From positions 1 to 9,004 of the forward strand of contig QMMZ01000047.1 of the NCBI GenBank assembly GCA_003647525.1: a stretch of DNA of 9,004 nt. The letters run 5' to 3'. This document shows positions 103 through 5,370 of the stretch, piece by piece. Positions within the stretch are counted from its first letter, which is position 1. The number at the start of each line of letters is the position of its first letter. The notes beneath the pieces are model-generated. The model had not been told where the DNA came from. It saw only the letters and a program-made list of their open reading frames with translations, and did not search any database. The stretch is from Deltaproteobacteria bacterium. GTDB lineage: Bacteria; Desulfobacterota; Desulfobacteria; Desulfobacterales; ETH-SRB1. Both the position numbers and the translations under genes were made by a program.

Positions 103-127
103 TAGGCGTGTTAGGTGATTACGCCTA
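103..127. repeat. Inverted repeat TAGGCGT / ACGCCTA
   Basis: Two perfect 7-nt arms (103-109 and 121-127) are separated by 11 nt. The right arm lies inside the start of the helicase remnant. The left arm contains the in-frame stop (TAG at 103-105) that closes the remnant's frame on the upstream side. It may mark the edge of a rearrangement, but nothing identifies it as a known element. Confidence 0.4.
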
Positions 128-272
128 ATATCATTGTGCTGGATCGGATCAGAACGGATTTTGACGGGTTACGGATATTCTTTGAAGACCCTGTGCTGCC
201 GCCCAATGGATATTCAGGCGGTTTTGATGAACTCGTGGTGCTGAATGACGAGGCGCACCATATTCATGATCC

Positions 273-309
273 CCAAGCGGAATTTCAGGAACGTGGATAC
301 TCCGCTTGG
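273..309. repeat. 9-bp inverted repeat CCAAGCGGA / TCCGCTTGG
   Basis: Perfect 9-nt arms at 273-281 and 301-309 enclose a 19-nt loop. The left arm begins where the helicase similarity of the preceding frame ends, so it may be one end of a small inserted palindromic element or a deletion scar. I see no transposase, no matching copy elsewhere in the window and no integron attC core site. Confidence 0.5.
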
Positions 310-346
310 AAGGCGCATCCATTAACTTTAGGCACTTCAAAAGTCA

Positions 347-359
347 GCACCGAAGGTGC
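347..359. repeat. Short hairpin GCACC-GAA-GGTGC
   Basis: A 5-bp perfect stem with a 3-nt loop lies at the end of the remnant frame. A T-run (CTTTTT, 371-376) follows 11 nt later. That is too far for a standard rho-independent terminator, so any terminator role upstream of the cassette is speculative. The rest of 310-430 shows no gene and no convincing promoter. Confidence 0.3.
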
Positions 360-430
360 GCTAATTTAACCTTTTTATGGTACCCATTATCAAAGGTAGT
401 AGTTTAATACGATTAACCAAGCTCAAAACC

Positions 431-436
431 AGGAGG
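431..436 (+). promoter_or_regulatory. Shine-Dalgarno AGGAGG setting a TTG start
   Basis: A full AGGAGG lies 11 nt upstream of TTG at 448. The first in-frame ATG is at 463, 26 nt away and beyond normal reach, so the sequence favours TTG as the initiation codon of the first cassette gene. Confidence 0.7.
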
Positions 437-447
437 AAGCTGTAAAA

Positions 448-1851
448 TTGGATACAACAGAAATGGTAAACAAAATGTGCCATCTTGAGCTGACCGCTGT
501 GGACATTAAAGCTCTGTGTAGAAGCCGTGGTTTTACTTCCAGGGAGGCTAATTCCCGCAACCTTCTTGAAGGCTTTTTCTTGTCTGAAACAGGGGTAGCA
601 AACGCTATCAACGGACTGACAAGGGATGAGGTTATTCTGCTTCATCTGATGAAATTGATCCCTTTAACTGTGGATGCGGCATTTTTTGATCGCATCTATG
701 GCGCTGAAAATAGGCACAAATGGCGTTTTGGAACCTTTAATCAAAAATATAAGGATATCTTCAAGCAGGTAAAAATATCTCTTATTCGCCGGGGAGTAAT
801 CCTCTTTGCCGAAGAACATGAAACCTGGGGAAAAAATACAAAGCTGGAAAGACTGCGATTCAAATTTCCAAAAGAATTTCATCCATTTCTTCCTTTTCCC
901 TTTGGTCAGGCCAGGAGCATCCCAGGCCCTGGTAATTTCAACCAGAACGTTGTCAAAGACAAATTGATGGAAATATTAGACTGCCATACATCTGCATCTG
1001 AAACAAATGGAGCAAAGCACAGCCTGAGCATTAAGGATGGGGAATTGCGTATGGGCGGCAAGGAGTTCCGGGCCGAATACCTCGTGGAATGGCAAAGGGA
1101 TATTTGGGATTTGGCCTTAAAAGAGAAAAGCTATAAAAAAGCCGGGCAAGGTTCTGTATCTCCAACCAAAGCCGCAACCTATGCTTTTTCTCTGCTCAGG
1201 CCAGGAGAATGGATACTGCCTGATGAACTCTCATTACTTTTTAAGATTTTTTGCTATGGCATGGACCAGCCCGATCCCGAAAAGGTTTGCCAAGCCGGCT
1301 GGAAACAGGGGTGTCTGGCCAAACAAACGCTTGCCGGAAATACATATTACGCTCTGCCGGAAGATCATACTGATGCCGAAGATCAAATGGATCCCGGCCG
1401 GTTCTTGAAAAAAACCAATGACGGCACCGTAATAGTAGATATTTCAACCATTCCTTATGCAAGCCTGGAATTTCTGGCCTGGATATCGAATTTTAACGTG
1501 GCCGGCTCGCAATTGACAGCATCCCCCAACTCTGTCAAAATAGGCAGGGTCATTATGGATATTGACCAGGTCCCACTGACATCATGGCTCAGGGAAAATG
1601 CATCTGCATTTGCCGGCGCTATCTCTAAGATAAAGAAGCGGTGGGGAAAGCTGGTTGTGCATCAAAACCTTTTGGTGGCCAGGGTAAGAGACCTTAGTCT
1701 TAAAGTAGCAATCCAGAAGGCATTTGCAGATTCCGGCAAGGTTATTTTTTTGCCGGACAATTTTATTGCTTTTCCAAACGATCTGACAAAAAAAATGGAA
1801 GCACTGGTAAATAAATCCGGATATGTTGTCAAAGCCATAGAGGCAAAATGA
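448..1851 (+). CDS. Hypothetical protein, first gene of XPB-helicase cassette (helicase-associated winged-helix-like)
   Basis: This is a 467-residue soluble protein with no signal peptide or membrane segment. I do not recognise a named family with certainty. Residues 44-75 (GLTRDEVILLHLMKLIPLTV core) look like a winged-helix segment of the type seen in bacterial helicase-associated-domain proteins. Residues 317-420 (GTVIVDISTIPYASLEFLAW, later LVVHQNLLVARV) align by eye with the XPB N-terminal / Helicase_C_3-like domain in the two downstream proteins, though less clearly than those two match each other. No nuclease, methylase or ATPase motif is visible, and nothing suggests the archaeal XPB partner Bax1. 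Its stop overlaps the next gene's ATG by 4 nt (ATGA), so translation is probably coupled and the product is probably a partner of the XPB helicase. The role (DNA binding, scaffold or regulator) is unknown. The start is TTG, chosen by the AGGAGG upstream. Confidence 0.85.
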   Translation: MDTTEMVNKMCHLELTAVDIKALCRSRGFTSREANSRNLLEGFFLSETGVANAINGLTRDEVILLHLMKLIPLTVDAAFFDRIYGAENRHKWRFGTFNQKYKDIFKQVKISLIRRGVILFAEEHETWGKNTKLERLRFKFPKEFHPFLPFPFGQARSIPGPGNFNQNVVKDKLMEILDCHTSASETNGAKHSLSIKDGELRMGGKEFRAEYLVEWQRDIWDLALKEKSYKKAGQGSVSPTKAATYAFSLLRPGEWILPDELSLLFKIFCYGMDQPDPEKVCQAGWKQGCLAKQTLAGNTYYALPEDHTDAEDQMDPGRFLKKTNDGTVIVDISTIPYASLEFLAWISNFNVAGSQLTASPNSVKIGRVIMDIDQVPLTSWLRENASAFAGAISKIKKRWGKLVVHQNLLVARVRDLSLKVAIQKAFADSGKVIFLPDNFIAFPNDLTKKMEALVNKSGYVVKAIEAK

Positions 1852-1868
1852 GTGAAATGAGTGAAATG
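1848..1868 (+). repeat. Tandem ATGAGTGAA repeat at the start codon
   Basis: The 9-mer ATGAGTGAA occurs twice (1848-1856, 1857-1865) and is followed by a third ATG at 1866, giving an N-terminus MSEMSEMN. The repeat multiplies possible start sites and could change length by slippage without breaking the frame. Confidence 0.7.
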
Positions 1869-3560
1869 AATTTAAAACAGATTGACGTTAATGGGCTGAA
1901 AGTATTTGCAAACCACTGTGACCTGCGAAAAGACCTGCATGTTTTTATGGCTTATGTCGGGAACCGGCATGTCAAGCGTTCAACAAGGGGGAACGCTCTG
2001 CCCAAAATGGATGCAAGAAGACTTGCAAAGCTGATAAGCGATCCTTTGGCCCCTGAAGAAGTGGAAGAATATGGATACAGCACATGGCTCGATTATATTG
2101 ACAAGACCGCCTTGAATCTCGGATTTGTCTCTTATGATACTAAAGGGGTGTATTTGGGGTATAGCAGTTCAGAGCCATCCTATCCTGACAATTATATTAA
2201 AATAGATGAGCGCAAATACAATAATTTCCTGAACATGACCCTTCAAGACCAGGAGAACCTGTTTGTTAAGAACCTGATTGGCGAATATACAGCCTGCGAT
2301 AATGAATTTTTTTATACCGGAGTTATGGGAACTCTTGATACCTTTAGCTTCAGTGGCTGCGCTACCGGTGTGCTTCCATCTTTAAACTTTGCCAAAATAA
2401 GAAATTTCTTGTTAAAGATCATGCAGCGTTGTCAAAGCGGGGTCTGGTATAGTACTGCATCTTTTATTCGGTATCTCAAGGCCGAACATCCTTTTTTCCT
2501 TATCCCCGAAAAACCGCGTTACAAGTATAAGTCAGACCGGATTAACGGCCGTTATGGTAACTTTGATGAAAGAAAAGAGTACCATGACCGTGATATTAAT
2601 ATTAAGATTACAGCCAAAGATTCCAATGCCTTTGAAAGGGTTGAAGGACGATATGTGGAACGTTTTCTGGAGGGCATCCCCCTTGCGCTGGGTTATGTTG
2701 ATCTGGGCTATGGAAAATCCGAATATAAAGAACGGAAGCCATCTTTAAACGCTCTCAAGGCATTCAAAGTGAATGAATGTTTCCTTTGTTTCATGGAGGG
2801 GAATATTCCCGATCCAAAAGTTACGGTTCAACCGAATTTTGAAATTCACGTGGAATCGGAGTTTTATCCGGCCGGAATCCTGGACAGGCTGAATACTCTT
2901 GCAGATATCATTTCCGAAAATACGGTCACCATCCTGAAATTGAATAAAAGGAAGGTAACTGCCCGGTTGGCAAATGATGAGTCATTGGATGTGGTTGCCA
3001 TACTCCGGAATCTTTCTGATTCAAACGTTCCGCAAAATGTTTTGACCGAACTTGAGGAATGGGTCGGCCACTCAGAGGTTTTTACTCTGTATCACGGGTT
3101 TGGATTGTTGGAAGGAGACTCGAATCTCGACATGGCAAAAAATTTTACTGTAAAAAGTATCAGTCCTACACTCAGAATTGTTAAAGAGCCGAAGAAACTT
3201 TTTGACAGACTGGAAGAAGCAAAACTGATCCCAATAATTGTAAAACATTCCGACAAGGCATTCAGGTCGCTTCCGGATGGCGTCAAGTCCAGGTTCCCCA
3301 AAAAGTCGGATATGATAGTCAAACGCAAGAAGAAAAAAACCGTTACTTTAAAGCGCAAAACTGTCATTACACTTTATTTTCCCGATAAGATGGTGTTAGA
3401 AAAATGCAGCAAGGCTCTAATCCACGAAAGATGCGATATTGAATTGAACCGGAAAAATAAATCTATCAGCTATTCAGGAGAGGAGCAGAAACAGATAAAC
3501 TCAGCATTAAAAACTCTCAAAAAAGAATATGTCATTAATATAAAGGATATTGACTGGTGA
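1848..3560 (+). CDS. Helicase-associated-domain protein (XPB/Ssl2 N-terminal-like), second gene of cassette
   Basis: This is a 570-residue cytoplasmic protein without ATPase motifs. Residues 42-66 (STRGNALPKMDARRLAKLI) match the short motif that opens many bacterial helicase-associated-domain proteins. Residues 315-415 give the clearest domain: VTVQPNFEIHVES, then a helical stretch with ISENTVTILKLNKRKV, then SDSNVPQNVLTELEEW and VFTLYHGFGLLEG. This is the pattern of the Helicase_C_3 / XPB-Ssl2 N-terminal domain (PF13625, from memory), which in XPB binds damaged DNA or partners. A very basic stretch (about 480-495, KRKKKK) and a small C-terminal alpha/beta-looking segment (495-570) follow. 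It overlaps both neighbours by 4 nt, so it is likely made in fixed ratio with the helicase. Three in-frame ATGs (1848, 1857, 1866) lie in a 9-nt tandem repeat. I chose 1848 because GAGG (1840-1843) sits 4 nt ahead and it overlaps the previous stop, but 1857 is possible. Precise function is unknown. Confidence 0.88.
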   Translation: MSEMSEMNLKQIDVNGLKVFANHCDLRKDLHVFMAYVGNRHVKRSTRGNALPKMDARRLAKLISDPLAPEEVEEYGYSTWLDYIDKTALNLGFVSYDTKGVYLGYSSSEPSYPDNYIKIDERKYNNFLNMTLQDQENLFVKNLIGEYTACDNEFFYTGVMGTLDTFSFSGCATGVLPSLNFAKIRNFLLKIMQRCQSGVWYSTASFIRYLKAEHPFFLIPEKPRYKYKSDRINGRYGNFDERKEYHDRDINIKITAKDSNAFERVEGRYVERFLEGIPLALGYVDLGYGKSEYKERKPSLNALKAFKVNECFLCFMEGNIPDPKVTVQPNFEIHVESEFYPAGILDRLNTLADIISENTVTILKLNKRKVTARLANDESLDVVAILRNLSDSNVPQNVLTELEEWVGHSEVFTLYHGFGLLEGDSNLDMAKNFTVKSISPTLRIVKEPKKLFDRLEEAKLIPIIVKHSDKAFRSLPDGVKSRFPKKSDMIVKRKKKKTVTLKRKTVITLYFPDKMVLEKCSKALIHERCDIELNRKNKSISYSGEEQKQINSALKTLKKEYVINIKDIDW

Positions 3561-5209
3561 ACGATCCGGGACCACTCATAGTTCAGAGCGACCACACCAT
3601 TATGGTTGAAGTAGCTCACCCTCAGTATGCCCGATGCCGCGATTTTTTGAACAGCTTTGCAGAATTGGTCAAGTCTCCGGAGTTTATTCATACATACAGA
3701 GTTACACCCCTCTCTCTGTGGAACAGTGCTGCCCTTGAAATAGGCATGGATGAGATCATAAACAGGTTGATACGCTATTCCCGTTATGAAATACCTTCCA
3801 ATGTGCTCTTTGATATCAGGGAATGGTATGAAACTTACGGCAGCCTGGTACTTGAAAAGGTATCTGAAGATAGTTTGCGATTGAGAATCAGCGATTCCAT
3901 AATCCTTAACCGGATCCAACAGGATAACGATCTGGAACGATTCTGGTTAAAAAAAACAGAGGACGGATTTTTGATCTCAGCCGGCGAACGGGGAAATCTG
4001 AAGCATGCCCTTGTAAAAACAGGTTATCCGGTCAAGGATACCTGCGGATACGTGCCAGGCGCTCCGATTGACTTAAGTTTACGCACTATTGATGCCCACG
4101 GTCGCGCCTTTGACCTCCGTGGCTATCAAAAAGAGGCGGTTGACGCCTTTTATCAGGCTGGCAGTGCCTCCGGCGGTAGCGGTATCATTGTCCTTGCATG
4201 TGGTTCCGGAAAAACCATTATCGGGTTGGGGGTTATGAGTAAGGTAGGCAGCCATTCCCTCATCATTACAACCAATAACGTATCCGTGCATCAATGGCGT
4301 GAGGAATTGCTTTCCAGGACGACATTGGATAATGAGGAAATCGGCGAGTTCACCGGCCTTATAAAAGAGATAAAGCCGGTAACTATTACTACCTACCAGA
4401 TGTTGACCTATCGTCGAACAAAAGAAGATCCGCTCCTTAATCTGGATATTTTTACAAAACATGACTGGGGCCTGATCATTTACGACGAGGTTCACCTCCT
4501 TCCTGCTCCTGTGTTCCGTGCAACAACTTCCATTCAGGCCAGACGACGGCTGGGACTCACAGCCACCCTTGTGCGGGAAGACGGCAAGGAAGACGATGTG
4601 TTTGCCCTGATCGGGCCGAAACGATATGATGTTCCATGGAAAACCCTGGAAAGCAAAGGCTTTATTGCAGAGGCAATCTGCATAGAGTACAGACTCTTAC
4701 TGCCTTCGAAGGAAGAACTCGAGTATGCCCATGCCTCAAAGAGGCAACGCTTTCGCATTGCCGCTGAGAATTCCGGAAAACTTACGCTGGTTGAAGAACT
4801 GATCTGTCATCACTCAGATGACAGCATCCTTGTTATAGGCCAGTACATTGCGCAGGTAGAAAAAATCGCCAAGAAACTGAACCTGCCGATTATCACAGGC
4901 AAAACAAAGCATGAGGAACGTAAAAAAATATATACGGATTTCAGGAAAGGGCGGATCAAGGTCCTGGTTGTCTCAAAGGTAGCCAACTTTGCGGTGGATC
5001 TTCCTGATGCCAACGTGATGATACAGGTCTCCGGCACCTTTGGATCACGCCAGGAAGAGGCACAGCGCTTAGGTCGCATCCTCAGACCCAAAAAACGAGC
5101 TTCTTGCTTTTACACCCTTGTCTCAAAAGGCACAGACGAACAAAATTTTGCCGTTAACCGCCAGCTTTTTCTGGTTGAGCAGGGCTATAAGTATCAGATC
5201 CGCTATTGA
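3557..5209 (+). CDS. XPB/Rad25/Ssl2-type SF2 DNA helicase
   Basis: This is a 550-residue ATP-dependent DNA helicase/translocase of the XPB family (TFIIH and excision repair in eukaryotes; scattered in archaea and bacteria). An N-terminal damage-recognition/Helicase_C_3-like domain spans about 7-120 (LIVQSDHTIMVEV, TYRVTPLSLW, IPSNVLFDIREW). The ATPase core follows: LRGYQ (187-191), Walker A ACGSGKT (214-220), TTYQ (278-281), motif II DEVH (310-313) and motif III TAT (335-337). The XPB RED motif is present (R340-E341-D342) and is followed by the family's LIGPKRYDVPW block. A segment at about 375-410 is in the place of the thumb insert. The second RecA domain has ILVIGQY (424-430), ITGKTKHEERKKIYTDF and motif VI EEAQRLGRILRP (500-511). 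All catalytic residues look intact and the length is typical of prokaryotic XPB. It starts at GTG inside the previous stop (GTGA), with AAGGA (3543-3547) 9 nt upstream. No adjacent Bax1 nuclease is visible, so it probably works with the two upstream proteins, in repair or in defence. Confidence 0.95.
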   Translation: MNDPGPLIVQSDHTIMVEVAHPQYARCRDFLNSFAELVKSPEFIHTYRVTPLSLWNSAALEIGMDEIINRLIRYSRYEIPSNVLFDIREWYETYGSLVLEKVSEDSLRLRISDSIILNRIQQDNDLERFWLKKTEDGFLISAGERGNLKHALVKTGYPVKDTCGYVPGAPIDLSLRTIDAHGRAFDLRGYQKEAVDAFYQAGSASGGSGIIVLACGSGKTIIGLGVMSKVGSHSLIITTNNVSVHQWREELLSRTTLDNEEIGEFTGLIKEIKPVTITTYQMLTYRRTKEDPLLNLDIFTKHDWGLIIYDEVHLLPAPVFRATTSIQARRRLGLTATLVREDGKEDDVFALIGPKRYDVPWKTLESKGFIAEAICIEYRLLLPSKEELEYAHASKRQRFRIAAENSGKLTLVEELICHHSDDSILVIGQYIAQVEKIAKKLNLPIITGKTKHEERKKIYTDFRKGRIKVLVVSKVANFAVDLPDANVMIQVSGTFGSRQEEAQRLGRILRPKKRASCFYTLVSKGTDEQNFAVNRQLFLVEQGYKYQIRY

Positions 5210-5259: not shown

Positions 5260-5275
5260 AATTTGAAATAAACAA

Positions 5276-5349
5276 ACGGTTAACAGTTTACGGTTTACGG
5301 TTGTTCAAAACATAAAACTGTAAACCGTGAACCGACAACCGTAAACCGT
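5276..5349. repeat. Facing heptamer repeat arrays (ACGGTTN), 4 forward and 5 reverse
   Basis: Reading forward, 5276-5303 is four abutting 7-mers: ACGGTTA, ACAGTTT, ACGGTTT, ACGGTTG. On the opposite strand, 5349 back to 5315 is five: ACGGTTT, ACGGTTG, TCGGTTC, ACGGTTT, ACAGTTT. The 11 nt between (5304-5314) are AT-rich. The arms 5290-5304 and 5335-5349 are perfectly complementary over 15 bp, so a strong hairpin or cruciform can form. The array ends 21 nt before the livH ATG. Low-complexity 7-bp repeats of this kind are, from memory, scattered between genes in several deltaproteobacterial and other genomes. No function is established to my knowledge. Confidence 0.85.
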
Positions 5350-5370
5350 TACGAAGTAAATTTGTCTAAA

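What the first reader, a model, noticed from the sequence alone, without database searches (positions are those of the whole stretch)
448..5209. Three-gene XPB helicase cassette of unknown function: candidate undescribed repair or defence system
Seen: a complete XPB-type helicase is translationally coupled to two large non-enzymatic-looking proteins through 4-nt overlaps (ATGA, GTGA). Known: in archaea XPB usually pairs with the nuclease Bax1, and in eukaryotes it acts in TFIIH. Inference: here the two upstream proteins replace Bax1 as partners, forming a three-subunit complex. The locus sits directly behind the debris of a restriction-type helicase, as expected for a defence island. I do not recall a named phage-defence system with this composition.
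Basis: partly seen in the sequence, partly recalled or inferred. Interest (0 to 1): 0.75.

Follow-up and report, generated by a model that had tools for sequence, protein, structure and literature searches.

The report
Bacterial XPB with two p52-like partners
Three overlapping genes encode the DNA-opening motor XPB and two partner proteins whose predicted shapes resemble p52, the protein that anchors XPB in the TFIIH transcription and repair complex of eukaryotes.

The parts
115..369 (+). 84-aa remnant of a DEAD/DEAH (restriction-type) helicase, outside the trio
   Evidence: Residues 1-35 68.6% identical to two plasmid records, one annotated DEAD/DEAH helicase; residues 37-57 weakly match NF046055 (E 0.043)
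431..436 (+). AGGAGG, likely ribosome-binding site of A, 11 nt before the TTG at 448
   Evidence: read from the sequence; inference
448..1851 (+). A: 467-aa p52-like subunit
   Evidence: 62 proteins at E<=0.001; AlphaFold model pLDDT 85.4; Foldseek's 9 matches at E<=0.001 are all chains of TFIIH-containing entries, in p52/Tfb2 position
1399..1647 (+). A residues 318-400: clutch-like domain (tentative)
1648..1824 (+). A residues 401-459: p8/Tfb5-like C-terminal domain (tentative)
1848..1851 (+). ATGA overlap, stop of A / start of B
1848..3560 (+). B: 570-aa p52-like subunit
   Evidence: 886 proteins at E<=0.001; model pLDDT 79.8; Foldseek's 20 matches at E<=0.001 are all chains of TFIIH-containing entries, best E 5.2e-7 to Tfb2
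1857..2801 (+). B residues 4-318: region matching the N-terminal half of p52
2811..3077 (+). B residues 322-410: clutch / XPB-N-terminal-type domain
3339..3551 (+). B residues 498-568: small alpha/beta C-terminal domain, in the position of the p52 C-terminal dimerisation module
3557..3560 (+). GTGA overlap, stop of B / start of C
3557..5209 (+). C: 550-aa XPB helicase
   Evidence: NF045503 814.5 bits, cut-off 610; yeast and human XPB in the PDB, best E 1.1e-81
3575..3955 (+). C residues 7-133: XPB N-terminal domain, the p52-docking domain in TFIIH
   Evidence: PF13625 100.4 bits; profile of 11 bacterial XPB N-termini matches yeast XPB at E 7e-19 and human XPB at about 2e-17
4109..4573 (+). C residues 185-339: helicase domain 1 (ResIII)
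   Evidence: 68.1 bits
4646..5200 (+). C residues 364-548: helicase domain 2 (ERCC3_RAD25_C)
   Evidence: 159.8 bits
5276..5342 (+). 27-nt inverted repeat between the trio and the liv operon
   Evidence: 81% complementary arms; stretch 5270-5362 folds at -31 kcal/mol, z -4.4; no T-run, role unknown

Best explanation
The cassette encodes a minimal TFIIH-like DNA-opening module. C (XPB) is the dsDNA translocase. B is a p52-like scaffold: winged-helix half, then a clutch domain of the same fold as XPB's N-terminal domain, then a small C-terminal domain. By analogy with TFIIH, B's clutch pairs with C's N-terminal domain and holds and stimulates the motor. A is a second, more divergent p52-like subunit whose small C-terminal domain may pair with that of B, as p8 pairs with p52. 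Shown: conserved gene linkage, C's identity, predicted folds of A and B. Inferred: the complex, the contacts, the stimulation. The likely role is accessory DNA repair (opening damaged or blocked duplex DNA beside UvrABC), with the cassette passed between lineages. The role is the least certain step.
Confidence: 0.6

Rival explanations
1. An anti-phage defence system: the XPB motor with two sensor/scaffold subunits acts on invading DNA.
For: Patchy distribution (16 of 291 genomes), relatives named from bacteria and archaea, A and B much more diverged than XPB (L040: A 36%, B 45%, C 67% identical to the window), one copy directly beside BREX brxA-brxB-brxC (L044), a weak Argonaute-like ORF near another (L039), helicase debris next to the window copy.
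Against: One clear defence neighbourhood among 14 (tally shows 25 of 178 families). PDC-S01 and RtcR hits recur among 96 control ORFs, and the SNF2 helicase in L039 scores best with an SCO1167-type family. No nuclease or other effector domain found in A, B or C beyond the helicase. No A or B on 72,556 plasmids, no B in 50,697 phage records or confirmed in viral contigs.
Confidence: 0.2
2. A housekeeping repair locus: simply the common bacterial XPB plus its helicase-associated partner, split into two genes.
For: Single partners sit beside XPB in Deinococcota, Bacillota, Actinomycetota and Cyanobacteriota records and in loci of this phylum; B shares their clutch.
Against: A has no match to the single partner beyond a weak 50-residue stretch. 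One locus (L039, G650) has single partner, XPB, A and B in a row, so A+B do not merely replace it. XPB is in 19 of 291 genomes of the order, so it is not housekeeping there.
Confidence: 0.15
3. The p52 resemblance is only a generic winged-helix resemblance, and A and B are unrelated DNA-binding adaptors.
For: Winged-helix domains are common; A's VIA rows mix PerR/Fur/ArsR-type regulators with TFIIH chains at the same Z; no sequence match of A or B to p52.
Confidence: 0.15

Closest known systems
XPB-p52-p8 arm of eukaryotic TFIIH
   Same: XPB with the N-terminal docking domain; a partner with winged-helix half, clutch of XPB-N-terminal fold and a small C-terminal domain, in that order
   Different: Two p52-like subunits and no separate p8 gene; no p34, p44, p62 or XPD within the trio; B aligns from about p52 residue 110-120 on, so the N-terminal winged helix that binds p34/p62 seems to be missing (inference); no p52 sequence signature
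Bacterial XPB with one helicase-associated (PF13625) partner
   Same: XPB of the same equivalog; partner with a clutch-type domain near XPB
   Different: The trio has two partners, neither over the PF13625 cut-off in the window (B 19.5 against 34.2 bits); the single-partner profile ends in a WYL-like region, which A and B do not show
Archaeal XPB-Bax1
   Same: XPB with a dedicated partner (PMC13024598, passages)
   Different: No Bax1 in 17 of 17 genomes with trio genes; no nuclease domain found in A or B; Bax1 binds the thumb and HD2 of XPB (PMC13024598, passage), not an N-terminal clutch
BREX
   Same: One trio copy lies beside brxA-brxB-brxC (L044)
   Different: A and B match no BREX or other PADLOC model at E<=1; BrxA and BrxC models each matched a single ORF of the 96 flanking ones

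Membership tests
DNA repair helicase XPB, bacterial (NF045503) | score over the curated cut-off of 610 bits, full length | tested here: met
   C: 814.5 bits, residues 6-548 on 1-547 of 548
TFIIH XPB-p52-p8 module | XPB with the N-terminal domain that pairs with p52 | tested here: met
   PF13625 100.4 bits; bacterial N-terminal profile finds yeast and human XPB at 7e-19 to 2e-17
TFIIH XPB-p52-p8 module | p52 fold in B: winged-helix half followed by clutch | tested here: met
TFIIH XPB-p52-p8 module | p52 C-terminal dimerisation module in B | tested here: inconclusive
   small alpha/beta domain in the right place, no specific match
TFIIH XPB-p52-p8 module | p52 fold in A | tested here: inconclusive
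TFIIH XPB-p52-p8 module | p52/Tfb2 sequence family | tested here: not met
   No Tfb2 model (I recall that Pfam holds one) among Pfam hits of 19 B and 23 A sequences at E<=10; no p52 chain by profile of A or B
TFIIH XPB-p52-p8 module | separate p8/Tfb5 subunit | tested here: inconclusive
TFIIH XPB-p52-p8 module | physical XPB-p52 contact and ATPase stimulation | not testable with these tools
   needs biochemistry or complex prediction
Archaeal XPB-Bax1 | Bax1 nuclease (DUF790, PF05626; identity of family recalled) in the genome | tested here: not met
   0 of 17 genomes with trio genes; 4 of 14 control genomes ring
Named anti-phage systems (PADLOC 2.0.0) | component models match A or B | tested here: not met
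   0 families at E<=1 for A and B; C shows matches to helicase models only
Defence island | neighbourhoods richer in defence genes than control regions | tested here: inconclusive
   BREX in 1 of 14; 178 PADLOC families matched by 96 flanking ORFs against 49 by 96 control ORFs, but inflated by one BREX locus and one SNF2 helicase with 33 families

The most novel reading that the evidence does not exclude
The XPB-p52 arm of TFIIH is older than eukaryotes: bacteria and archaea (a B homologue is also named from a Promethearchaeota record, P0055) carry it as a self-contained, transferable operon in which XPB is clutched by p52-like subunits, and eukaryotic TFIIH took over such a ready-made module.
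Probability: 0.35. Interest if true: 0.9.

Novelty: new variant of a known kind. Interest (0 to 1): 0.72.

Why it matters
A 2012 study of a bacterial XPB states that homologues of other TFIIH subunits had not been identified in bacteria and that bacterial XPB probably acts without a TFIIH-like complex (PMC3353954, passages). A 2026 review says archaea lack a TFIIH-like assembly and that XPB's function in archaea and bacteria is elusive (PMC13024598, passages). If A and B are p52-like partners, the open question of what bacterial XPB does gets a defined complex to purify, and the origin of TFIIH can be studied in a three-protein system.

Tried and rejected
Bax1 replacement taken literally: no Bax1 found in these genomes. 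Mobile carriers: no A or B on plasmids, no B in phages or viral contigs (29 stretches matched a pattern, none confirmed); A was not searched in phages or viral contigs. B against A by hhalign: nothing. Sequence route to p52 from A, B and B's clutch: nothing; clutch of B against XPB N-termini only 54.9%; only the single-partner profile reached p52, at E 0.011. A second A search with the alignment returned 62 proteins, as the first did. ZorD/DpdE reading of the L039 helicase dropped: it scores best with SCO1167-type, under that cut-off. Rfam: none in the window. Promoter and terminator scans gave counts near those of shuffles. Literature: ten searches; no listed title or abstract, and none of the passages I read in five papers, describes a prokaryotic p52 or an XPB trio. 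Only open-licence PMC papers are held, no preprints.

My ORF picker failed on high-GC plasmid loci L073, L075, L076, where I used the annotation (L076 has none). L047-L052 were found through their partner, so they do not count for how often XPB has one.

Full report
What is there. The window holds three complete, overlapping genes, A (448-1851), B (1848-3560) and C (3557-5209), followed by a Liv-type amino-acid transporter operon and preceded by a short helicase remnant. Between C and the first transporter gene lies a 27-nt inverted repeat (5276-5302/5316-5342) in a stretch that folds better than shuffled sequence (-31 against a mean of -17 kcal/mol). Its role is unknown.

C is XPB: 814.5 bits to NF045503, cut-off 610, and its closest solved relatives are yeast and human TFIIH XPB. 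It carries the N-terminal Helicase_C_3 domain (100.4 bits). A profile of 11 bacterial XPB N-termini finds yeast XPB at E 7e-19 and human XPB at about 2e-17. A and B reach no family cut-off.

Is the trio conserved? In 291 genomes drawn from the order of G002, B is in 16 and XPB (E<=1e-60) in 19, both in 15 (Fisher p 1.3e-20). The one B without XPB (G618) lies on a contig that ends 148 nt beyond A, where C would follow in its gene order. In 12 of the 16 loci parts of all three genes lie on one contig. Not all are whole: C runs off the contig in G599 and G511, only A's last 62 residues are recognisable in G002, B contains stops in G632, and B's end diverges in G518. G001, G623, G618 and G651 are cut by contig ends. 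Of the four XPB genomes without B, G487 has C followed by A at a contig edge, G460 has a single partner, G497 shows no partner and G642 has a truncated XPB; G416 has a second XPB with a single partner. In a broader draw of 395 genomes of the phylum of G001, 10 matched and only G001 had a full B; the other nine were matches of about 100 residues, and in the six that I fetched they lie in a single partner next to XPB. Elsewhere, A and B are both named from Nitrospiraceae and ANME-2 archaea, A also from SAR324, Desulfosarcina and Fuerstiella, B also from Anaerolineales, Euryarchaeota and Promethearchaeota. Eleven longest-contig lengths coincide between the two hit lists (62 A, 120 shown of 886 B) against 0-1 in ten shifted comparisons.

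Gene order and descent. Two arrangements exist. In A-B-C loci (window included), B-to-C can overlap by 4 nt in 10 of 11 and A-to-B in 6 of 9 (one by 8). In C-A-B loci, C-to-A overlaps by 4 nt in 3 of 6 and A-to-B by 8 nt in 3 of 5. Trees split A (14 rows) and B (17 rows) into these two groups with support 100. The A-B-C XPBs form one clade (100/100) that groups with single-partner XPBs of the phylum (99/99), while the C-A-B XPBs group elsewhere with one single-partner XPB among them (100/99). So A and B travel together and have joined XPB, or exchanged it, at least once; roots are uncertain. XPB is far better conserved than A and B (L038 against the window: C 70%, A 30%, B 44%).

Why this is more than a shape match. 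[quoted passage not shown] p52's C-terminal module binds p8 (PMC6422496, passages). Here the protein with the clutch fold is encoded next to an XPB that keeps the docking domain. The single partner beside other bacterial XPBs shares B's clutch region (hhalign 97.4%, E 1.1e-11). A profile of 11 single partners, searched against 177,635 PDB sequences, finds PafBC by its WYL-like end (E 1.8e-5), then XPB chains (from E 7e-5) and then human p52 in the clutch (E 0.011 and 0.012). Each row of that alignment is found by a profile made without it (E 1e-14 or better). Of 12 XPB loci chosen by XPB alone (8 plasmid records, 4 of the order), 9 have such a partner within about 3 kb (L014-L017, L073-L075, L077, L079), L076 has a partial hit, L078 and L080 none. 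One locus (L039) has single partner, XPB, A and B in a row.

Against: no sequence link from A or B themselves to p52, low whole-chain TM-scores, no complex model, some XPBs without any partner. I therefore call A and B p52-like and do not file them as members of the Tfb2 family.

Role. No nuclease, methylase or toxin domain was found in the trio. UvrB is over its cut-off in 15 of 17 genomes with trio genes; the incomplete G002 shows a contig-edge fragment and G001 only weak matches inside other proteins. The trio thus adds to excision repair where this can be judged. Defence: 96 flanking ORFs from 14 loci gave one BREX cluster (brxA, brxB, brxC beside the trio in L044), an SNF2 helicase and a weak Argonaute-like ORF near L039, PDC-S01 near L042 and RtcR near L037; PDC-S01 and RtcR also occur among 96 ORFs from 14 control regions of five genomes. 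I favour accessory DNA repair with moderate confidence and leave defence open at 0.2.

Novelty. Ten full-text searches listed no paper on a prokaryotic p52 or on this trio. PMC3353954 (passages) says homologues of other TFIIH subunits had not been identified in bacteria; PMC13024598 (passages) says archaea lack a TFIIH-like assembly. PMC9258230 (passages) names an archaeal 'TFIIH-like' family, but it relates it to RAD25/XPB, not p52. Preprints and subscription papers were not searchable.

Noticed in passing
window 5276-5342: Strong inverted repeat between the trio and the transporter operon without a T-run; the stretch folds at z -4.4. Could be a terminator-like or repeat element.
   Followed up: partly
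L044 58-5426: brxA, brxB and brxC lie directly beside the trio, which stands on the opposite strand where I would expect further BREX genes (order recalled).
   Followed up: partly
L039 1745-8323: Four-gene array: cyanobacterial-type single partner, XPB, A, B. It joins both partner systems in one locus.
   Followed up: partly
protein P0182 (284 aa): UvrD-type helicase N-terminus fused in frame to an internal stretch of A (79% identical over 18% of A): a rearranged A remnant, or a misassembly.
   Followed up: no
alignment A4 (L014-L017, L039, L047-L052 partners), profile positions 564-625: The profile of single XPB partners ends in a region matching WYL domains such as PafBC (E 1.8e-5); which rows carry it was not checked one by one.
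   Followed up: no
L043 9470-11086: B copy of G632 contains stops beside an open XPB and an open A.
   Followed up: no
L002 1-202: In G002 only A residues 406-467 are recognisable; the 202 nt before them do not match A, so A is disrupted there or the contig end is misassembled.
   Followed up: no
L039 10055-11506: 484-aa ORF with a weak match to prokaryotic Argonaute models (E 5.6e-14 to an Argonaute-associated model, 1.2e-9 to pAgo), no NCBIfam family at E 1e-10.
   Followed up: no
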